Source: Candidatus Doudnabacteria bacterium (lineage in GTDB: Bacteria > Patescibacteriota > Doudnabacteria > UBA920). From it: DNA of 44,745 nucleotides. The stretch spans positions 1-44,745 of the forward strand of contig JAHFJJ010000010.1 of NCBI GenBank assembly GCA_023245895.1, in the 5' to 3' direction. The notes beneath the pieces are model-generated. The model was not told where the DNA came from and did no database searches. It saw only the letters and a program-made list of their open reading frames with translations. Made by a program: the position numbers and the translations under genes. Numbering within the stretch: position 1 is the first letter of the stretch; each line of letters begins with the position of its first letter. Below are positions 17,534 through 17,826 of the stretch, piece by piece.

Positions 17534-17562
17534 TTGACTTTATTTGGGTACGGGTGTATAGT
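17534..17562 (+). promoter_or_regulatory. Sigma70-type promoter
   Basis: TTGACT-N17-TATAGT; ATG of leader peptide 1 begins 10 nt after the -10 box, so the transcript would be nearly leaderless. Confidence 0.8.
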
Positions 17563-17571
17563 GGTTTCAAG

Positions 17572-17628
17572 ATGAATAATAAACAGCAATCAATCCAGAG
17601 CTTAGTCGTAGTCGTCTCCCTCACTTAG
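17572..17628 (+). CDS. Leader peptide 1: MNNKQQSIQSLVVVVSLT
   Basis: 18-codon ORF with GTC GTA GTC GTC just before an alternative-hairpin region and terminator. Confidence 0.72.
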   Translation: MNNKQQSIQSLVVVVSLT

Positions 17629-17688
17629 GGTGGCGATGTTGTAATTTCTTAAACTTACAAACCGCTCCCCTAGGGGAGCGGTTTTTTA
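17612..17688 (+). promoter_or_regulatory. Attenuator-like RNA 1
   Basis: 1:2 TCGTCTCCCT/AGGGTGGCGA (612-621/627-636, 9 of 10 pairs); 2:3 AGGGTGGCG/CGCTCCCCT (627-635/663-671, 8 of 9); 3:4 terminator ACCGCTCCCC TA GGGGAGCGGT then TTTTT. Confidence 0.72.
17661..17688 (+). terminator. Intrinsic terminator of attenuator 1
   Basis: ACCGCTCCCCTAGGGGAGCGGTTTTTT, perfect 10-bp stem. Confidence 0.9.
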
Positions 17689-17703
17689 TTTATTTAACCT
17701 TTT

Positions 17704-17760
17704 ATGCTTAATAATTTGCTCAAAATCTCCGAAGTCGTAGTAGTCGTCTCAAGCCCTTGA
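17704..17760 (+). CDS. Leader peptide 2: MLNNLLKISEVVVVVSSP
   Basis: 18-codon ORF with GTC GTA GTA GTC GTC; no evident Shine-Dalgarno. Confidence 0.65.
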   Translation: MLNNLLKISEVVVVVSSP

Positions 17761-17826
17761 GATTGGCTGCTTTGGTATAAATTCTAACCAAACATCCCAG
17801 GTCTCAAGGCCCGGGATGTTTTTTGT
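17747..17826 (+). promoter_or_regulatory. Attenuator-like RNA 2
   Basis: 1:2 TCTCAA GCCC TTGAGA (747-762); 2:3 CCTTGAGATTGG with CCAGGTCTCAAGG (755-766/797-809, one bulged A, two G-U); 3:4 AACATCCC(A)GG...CCGGGATGTT then T run. Confidence 0.7.
17791..17825 (+). terminator. Intrinsic terminator of attenuator 2
   Basis: AACATCCCAGG TCTCAAGGC CCGGGATGTTTTTTG. Confidence 0.85.

What the first reader, a model, noticed from the sequence alone, without database searches (positions are those of the whole stretch)
17534..17826. Tandem Val-codon attenuators driving a micro-operon in a CPR-like genome
Seen: after a TTGACT-N17-TATAGT promoter, two 18-aa ORFs carry four and five consecutive Val codons (MNNKQQSIQSLVVVVSLT; MLNNLLKISEVVVVVSSP). 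The same three-state topology follows each. Strand 1 overlaps the Val codons, strand 2 overlaps or follows the stop codon, strand 2 can also pair with strand 3, and strand 3 is part of a U-tailed terminator. Module 1: 612-621/627-636, 627-635/663-671, 661-670/673-682. Module 2: 747-752/757-762, 755-766/797-809, 791-801/811-820. Established: ribosome-mediated attenuation of this topology controls branched-chain amino acid operons in proteobacteria. Inference: Val-tRNA charging sets read-through into what follows. What follows is not a biosynthetic operon but tiny ORFs and structured RNAs. Caveat: leader 2 has no evident SD.
Basis: partly seen in the sequence, partly recalled or inferred. Interest (0 to 1): 0.93.

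Follow-up and report, generated by a model that had tools for sequence, protein, structure and literature searches.

The report
Twin valine-sensing gene switches in Patescibacteria
A tiny-genome bacterium carries, in front of three very small unknown genes, two consecutive RNA switches that sequence and folding analysis predict will open only when ribosomes run short of valine, and the same kind of switch for other amino acids turns up elsewhere in its genome and in its relatives.

Summary
At 17534-17826 a promoter is followed by two 18-codon leaders with 4 and 5 Val codons, each with three-state attenuator topology. A simulated ribosome walk drops terminator formation (about 0.9 to 0.23 and 0.28) when the A-site is on the first Val codon and restores it at the stop; 1 and 7 of 1500 shuffles match the drop. 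They are the only Val-run leaders before terminators in the 1.14-Mb genome.

The locus has no homologue anywhere searched, but the mechanism recurs. The same genome has a Trp-Trp leader between a TrpR gene and trpE/trpG, a Tyr leader before tyrS, a Lys leader before lysC-lysA, and Ile, Phe and Ser leaders, several before unknown genes. Trp-Trp leaders recur next to TrpR in five relatives, and a Val5 leader occurs in a Dojkabacteria genome. Of 13 leaders not chosen by the switching test, 12 switch at the cognate codons.

Best reading: two Val-tRNA-dependent attenuators in series, a double lock on an ORFan micro-operon, part of a broader Patescibacterial set. I found no paper on such attenuation in this phylum (open-access library only). 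The micro-operon's role is unknown; it sits in a genome-specific insertion between guaA and guaB.

The parts
17534..17562 (+). Sigma-70-like promoter TTGACT-N17-TATAGT; predicted start of transcription about 17569
   Evidence: 10 of 12 consensus matches
17572..17628 (+). Leader peptide 1, MNNKQQSIQSLVVVVSLT, Val codons 17605-17616; near-leaderless start
17612..17636 (+). Module 1 hairpin 1:2 (17612-17621 with 17627-17636), overlapping Val codons and stop
   Evidence: folding
17627..17671 (+). Module 1 antiterminator 2:3 (17627-17635 with 17663-17671)
17659..17690 (+). Terminator 1 (stem 17659-17684 plus U tract)
17704..17760 (+). Leader peptide 2, MLNNLLKISEVVVVVSSP, Val codons 17734-17748; no Shine-Dalgarno
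17739..17771 (+). Module 2 hairpin 1:2
17755..17809 (+). Module 2 antiterminator 2:3 (17755-17766 with 17797-17809)
17791..17827 (+). Terminator 2
17841..17925 (+). Structured RNA A, closed by TTGTGAAAAG/CTTTTCACAA, upstream of ORF 1
   Evidence: folding
17926..17942 (+). Hairpin ACCCGTCCGAAGCGGGT before the Shine-Dalgarno of ORF 1; compensatory partner at 18181-18197
   Evidence: repeat D6
17957..18043 (+). ORF 1, 28 aa, Cys- and Arg-rich, strong Shine-Dalgarno
   Evidence: no significant family
18052..18086 (+). Possible H-type pseudoknot after ORF 1, copy 1
   Evidence: sequence and repeats D3/D4
18087..18170 (+). Structured RNA B, copy 1 (three-way junction)
18214..18447 (+). ORF 2, 77 aa, C-terminal CPSCDSFGCRC; ORFan
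18464..18498 (+). Pseudoknot copy 2
18498..18581 (+). Structured RNA B, copy 2
18603..18743 (+). ORF 3, 46 aa, basic
18739..18766 (+). Pseudoknot copy 3 with compensatory GCCGAC/GTCGGC
18773..18805 (+). End terminator of the micro-operon
16739..17410 (+). PaaX/Cas2-like regulator gene upstream (PF20803), part of the same inserted stretch

Best explanation
Two ribosome-mediated, valine-specific transcription attenuators in series control a micro-operon of three tiny ORFs. RNA polymerase starts at about 17569 and a ribosome begins leader 1 close behind. With enough Val-tRNA the ribosome runs through the Val codons to the stop, covers strand 2, and terminator 1 forms. When Val-tRNA is short, the ribosome stalls on the first Val codons, covers strand 1, strand 2 pairs with strand 3, and polymerase passes. 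Leader 2 then repeats the test with a fifth Val codon, so the operon opens only if both leaders stall (a double lock that multiplies termination and sharpens the response). The pair belongs to a set of amino-acid leaders (Trp, Tyr, Lys, Ile, Phe, Ser, Val) in this Patescibacterial lineage. Shown: sequence, topology, predicted switching at the cognate codons, and sister leaders before cognate genes. Inferred: translation of leader 2, stalling in the cell, response to valine, the series gate, and any role of the ORFs.
For: Topology in both modules with almost no shared sequence outside the Val codons. Ribosome walk: terminator probability 0.95 to 0.23 and 0.90 to 0.28 with the A-site at the first Val codon, restored at the stop; 1/1500 and 7/1500 shuffles reach the drop. 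Same genome: Trp-Trp leader between TrpR and trpE/trpG, Tyr leader before an NAD-binding (TyrA-like) gene and tyrS, Lys leader before lysC-lysA. Trp-Trp leaders beside TrpR, with CTAG-centred operator-like palindromes, in five relatives, one followed by a TrpB-like gene. An Ile leader is kept beside rplA in G001 and G000. A Val5 leader with a similar layout in a Dojkabacteria genome dips only at Val 1-2. Twelve of 13 leaders not chosen by switching still switch (Fisher p about 4e-12; 3e-10 without the window's two). Short ORFs chosen only by promoter plus terminator are enriched for amino-acid runs (p about 1e-6).
Against: No homologous Val locus, so no direct covariation or synonymous-codon evidence for this locus. 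Leader 2 has no Shine-Dalgarno or promoter. At the length where strand 3 has just emerged, naked RNA prefers 2:3 even without a ribosome, so termination without translation relies on 1:2 forming first. No valine gene follows the switches. The walk uses equilibrium folding and an assumed 12-nt A-site offset.
Confidence: 0.74

Rival explanations
1. Only module 1 is a regulated attenuator; leader 2 is not translated and terminator 2 is a constitutive partial terminator or a decayed copy.
For: Leader 2 lacks a Shine-Dalgarno and a promoter.
Against: Module 2 keeps its own strands, with different sequence, and its own Val-specific dip. Only 23% of long ORFs in this genome have an SD-like motif, and the start region is A/U-rich and looks open.
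Confidence: 0.2
2. The leaders sense general translation slowing (for example ribosome-targeting drugs) rather than valine, as in erm or bmrCD leaders.
For: The controlled genes are not valine genes. Drug-sensing leaders with attenuators are documented (PMC4191407).
Against: Runs of one amino acid at the exact switching position, and cognate matches for Trp, Tyr and Lys in the same genome.
Confidence: 0.12
3. The Val run is a by-product of base pairing: strand 1 must contain GUCGUC-like sequence, and the leaders are not translated.
For: Only GTC (6) and GTA (3) are used among 9 Val codons although GTT and GTG make up 59% of Val codons in the genome; strand 1 overlaps them.
Against: The runs extend beyond the paired bases and stay in frame with start and stop in both modules. 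The Dojkabacteria leader uses other Val codons, and other leaders use other amino acids.
Confidence: 0.07
4. The terminators are ordinary insulators after the PaaX-like gene or ends of an inserted element, and the short ORFs are chance.
For: The stretch is a genome-specific insertion between guaA and guaB, flanked by palindromes.
Against: Shuffle controls and the rarity of VVVV in short ORFs; a promoter sits just upstream of leader 1.
Confidence: 0.05

Closest known systems
trp leader attenuators (E. coli trpL; leaderless trpL of Sinorhizobium meliloti, PMC7298713)
   Same: Short ORF with adjacent control codons, three-state RNA, U-tailed terminator. S. meliloti trpL also starts at the transcript 5' end, as leader 1 nearly does.
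   Different: Two modules in series, Val codons, and no cognate biosynthetic gene downstream.
ilvB-type leaders: E. coli ilvBN and the ilvB/ilvB-II motifs (PMC10272879)
   Same: Val-rich leader peptide read by ribosome-mediated attenuation; all representatives of the ilvB motif have at least three consecutive Val codons.
   Different: Those precede acetohydroxyacid synthase genes; this one precedes ORFans. Single module there, tandem here. No Rfam match at gathering score.
Salmonella mgtCBR tandem attenuators (PMC3641672)
   Same: Two short ORFs in one leader, each linked to its own attenuator, one with consecutive control codons (Pro).
   Different: mgtM and mgtP answer different signals (ATP, proline), act additively, and were called a singular example; here both leaders read the same codon family.
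Firmicute His leader peptides before hisS*/hisZ (PMC2965389)
   Same: Extends amino-acid leader peptides beyond Proteobacteria and Actinobacteria.
   Different: A different phylum; the present case widens it to Patescibacteria.

Membership tests
Amino-acid-dependent ribosome-mediated transcription attenuator | Short translated ORF with a run of control codons | tested here: inconclusive
   Run present and rare; translation itself not testable here, and leader 2 lacks a Shine-Dalgarno.
Amino-acid-dependent ribosome-mediated transcription attenuator | Mutually exclusive 1:2, 2:3 and 3:4 pairings placed so that a stall on the control codons frees strand 2 | tested here: met
   In silico.
Amino-acid-dependent ribosome-mediated transcription attenuator | Intrinsic terminator between leader and genes | tested here: met
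Amino-acid-dependent ribosome-mediated transcription attenuator | Downstream genes make, charge or take up the cognate amino acid | tested here: not met
   The three ORFs have no significant family. This is usual for the class rather than required by the mechanism; Trp, Tyr and Lys leaders of the same genome do meet it.
Amino-acid-dependent ribosome-mediated transcription attenuator | Conservation of codon run and alternative pairing in orthologous loci | tested here: inconclusive
   No orthologous Val locus found; conservation shown only for the Trp class.
Amino-acid-dependent ribosome-mediated transcription attenuator | Read-through responds to the amino acid in the cell | not testable with these tools
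   Needs reporter or term-seq.
T-box or riboswitch | Match to a curated covariance model | tested here: not met
   Only two tRNAs reach gathering scores in the window; weak matches only in the locus.
mgtCBR-type tandem attenuator | Two leader ORFs in one transcript answering different signals | tested here: not met
   Both leaders carry Val runs only.

The most novel reading that the evidence does not exclude
Patescibacteria, thought to depend on other cells for many amino acids, run an amino-acid-by-amino-acid hunger response through near-leaderless leader-peptide attenuators that switch on lineage-specific ORFan cassettes rather than biosynthesis; the Val pair is its tightest form, a same-signal double attenuator.
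Probability: 0.4. Interest if true: 0.87.

Novelty: new variant of a known kind. Interest (0 to 1): 0.74.

Why it matters
Naville and Gautheret (PMC2965389) wrote in 2010 that amino-acid leader peptides were known only from Proteobacteria and Actinobacteria before their Firmicute case, and my searches found no paper on such attenuation in Patescibacteria (open-access library only). If right, these reduced genomes use the same control, partly with near-leaderless leaders, and the identity of the control codon gives a readable clue to the signal that turns on otherwise uninterpretable ORFan operons. Two same-codon attenuators in series would be a clean natural test of how termination and sensitivity multiply.

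Tried and rejected
Relatives of the locus by DNA, protein and RNA model: none in 22 family genomes, 293 phylum genomes for RNA B, JGI metagenomes, IMG/VR (one 15-residue match dismissed), GTDB contigs (two unrelated hits), phages and plasmids, or 5.8 billion proteins.

VVVV-S-x-x-stop hits in family f23 looked like a conserved leader (VVVVSPT stop) but lie at the end of a long conserved frame, most without an ATG near, so I read them as antisense to a conserved gene; L115, L124 and L135 lie inside genes.

A first test ranking duplex strength with the terminator arm was poor (ranks 45 and 228 of 500), because it ignored strand 1, cut strand 3 short and included coding regions; the scored three-strand test gave ranks 3 and 18 of 281 intergenic terminators with 0/300 shuffles.

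Simple terminator-dip ranking put the modules at 33 and 37 of 248. Requiring a working terminator before and after the dip leaves 10 of 248, both modules among them.

The Ile leader of G001 shows no switching. A search for Lys leaders in relatives failed because lysC is absent there. Ile-leader loci around rplA in relatives could not be read.

Full report
OBSERVATION. A 10-of-12 sigma-70-like promoter (17534-17562) is followed after 9 nt by leader 1 (ATG 17572, MNNKQQSIQSLVVVVSLT), terminator 1, leader 2 (ATG 17704, MLNNLLKISEVVVVVSSP) and terminator 2. The proposed pairings all fold. In the rebuilt 1.14-Mb genome these are the only two Val-run short ORFs before a terminator; VVVV occurs in 3 of 2355 intergenic short ORFs. 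Among 281 intergenic terminators the modules rank 3 and 18 for a shared strand that pairs both upstream and with the terminator, and 0 of 300 dinucleotide shuffles reach either score. The nine Val codons are six GTC and three GTA, although GTT and GTG make up 59% of Val codons.

RIBOSOME WALK. I masked RNA up to 12 nt past the A-site codon by codon and computed the equilibrium probability of the terminator stem. In module 1 it is 0.90-0.96 everywhere except at the first and second Val codons (0.23, 0.80). In module 2 it is 0.83-0.90 almost everywhere except at Glu 10 (0.72), the first Val codon (0.28) and the fourth (0.52). With the RNA cut where strand 3 has just emerged, 2:3 is nearly fully formed for all Val positions in module 1 and gone at the stop. 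Shuffling the stretch between run and terminator reaches the observed drop in 1 and 7 of 1500 trials. These are equilibrium calculations with an assumed footprint; kinetics could differ. Without any ribosome, the short RNA prefers 2:3 but the full RNA prefers 1:2 plus the terminator.

TRANSLATION. Only 23% of 946 long ORFs have an SD-like motif within 20 nt, and ATG codons are strongly enriched 6 nt after a -10 hexamer (64 against 16 in shuffles), so leaderless starts are common in this genome. Leader 1 sits 9 nt after its -10, as do the Ile C37, Phe C21 and Trp C5 leaders. Leader 2 has neither promoter nor SD; it could start only internally, in an A/U-rich stretch. This is the weakest link.

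SISTER SWITCHES. A genome-wide search for terminators that are stable, dip for some upstream ribosome position and recover gave 10 of 248; besides the Val pair these include a Tyr leader (MKISSSQINSYYYATSLQRLR), a Trp leader (MYLLEHTKQSNLTWWTASSCRKARRF), a Lys leader (MNAQFSQFAKKSISTRLRR) and a Ser leader. The Trp leader lies between a Trp repressor gene (PF01371) and an operon of three unknown ORFs plus anthranilate synthase genes; the Tyr leader precedes an Asp/Glu racemase, an NAD-binding (TyrA-like) gene and tyrosyl-tRNA synthetase; the Lys leader precedes aspartokinase and a decarboxylase of the diaminopimelate type. Leaders for Ile (two) and Phe precede unknown ORFs; the Ser leader precedes unknown ORFs and then valS. 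TrpR searches gave five relatives with xWW leaders before a terminator, each with a CTAG-centred palindrome (trp-operator-like) near the leader's start; one is followed by a TrpB-like gene (PF00291), and three mainly by small uncharacterised ORFs. In G001 an Ile leader sits beside rplA as in this genome, before an unrelated ORF. In a genome identified by its protein as Candidatus Dojkabacteria, MNQIFLNNNVVVVVEPRLSGG precedes a terminator and an uncharacterised protein with two further paralogues on the same contig; its walk dips only at Val 1-2. Of 13 leaders chosen without using the walk, 12 switch at the cognate run more than shuffles do (combined p 4e-12; 3e-10 without the window's two); the Phe drop is small (0.08). 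Short ORFs chosen by promoter and terminator alone are enriched for runs. Because the Dojkabacteria genome is listed as the same phylum, the window's phylum is Patescibacteria (inference).

WHAT IT CONTROLS. Downstream are three tiny ORFs with strong Shine-Dalgarno sequences, two copies of a three-way-junction RNA, a paired hairpin before two of the Shine-Dalgarnos, and pseudoknot-capable elements after each ORF, several with compensatory changes between copies. ORF 2 has no homologue beyond its own record. In relatives guaA and guaB are convergent neighbours, mostly 46-150 bp apart, sometimes with other small genes between; here 2.5 kb separates them. So the unit is an accessory insertion specific to this genome among those compared.

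MECHANISM AND STANDING. Best reading: two Val-tRNA-dependent attenuators in series. It works like trp and ilvB attenuators (PMC7298713, PMC10272879, PMC1183508). The known tandem case, mgtCBR, answers two different signals (PMC3641672). Leader peptides were reported in 2010 as limited to Proteobacteria and Actinobacteria, with Firmicute cases added then (PMC2965389); I found nothing on Patescibacteria in the library, which lacks many subscription journals. Membership by mechanism is supported in silico; membership by cognate target genes is not met for this locus. In-cell function is untested.

Noticed in passing
16676-16711, 17446-17481, 18849-18886; also G000:C30:24028: Near-identical 34-36-nt palindromes flank the PaaX/Cas2-like gene and the micro-operon. 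PaaX-like genes in other genomes of the order are also flanked on both sides by matching palindromes whose sequence differs from gene to gene (L008, L011, L016, L019): gene-specific operators or mobile-unit ends.
   Followed up: partly
18052-18086, 18464-18498, 18739-18766: Three possible H-type pseudoknots with A-rich loop 3, one after each tiny ORF, with a compensatory GCCGGC to GCCGAC/GTCGGC change.
   Followed up: partly
18087-18170 and 18498-18581: Duplicated three-way-junction RNA of about 84 nt, seen nowhere else in 293 phylum genomes.
   Followed up: yes
15002-20219: guaA and guaB are convergent neighbours in relatives with 46-150 bp between them in most; the gap is a hotspot holding different small genes in different genomes.
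   Followed up: yes
G000 whole genome: Strong leaderless-mRNA signal (-10 hexamer ending 6 nt before ATG, 64 against 16) and few Shine-Dalgarno sites, while the micro-operon ORFs have strong ones.
   Followed up: yes
L169-L175: Trp repressor genes with CTAG-centred palindromes at the Trp-Trp leader promoters in Patescibacteria, several followed by small uncharacterised ORFs.
   Followed up: partly
G000:C37:1393 (+) and G001:C13:138896 (-): Ile-run leaders kept beside rplA but followed by unrelated ORFs (108 and 72 aa): the switch appears older than the gene it drives.
   Followed up: partly
L252:1514-1730: Val5 leader before an uncharacterised ~600-aa protein family with three paralogues on one contig in a Dojkabacteria genome.
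   Followed up: partly
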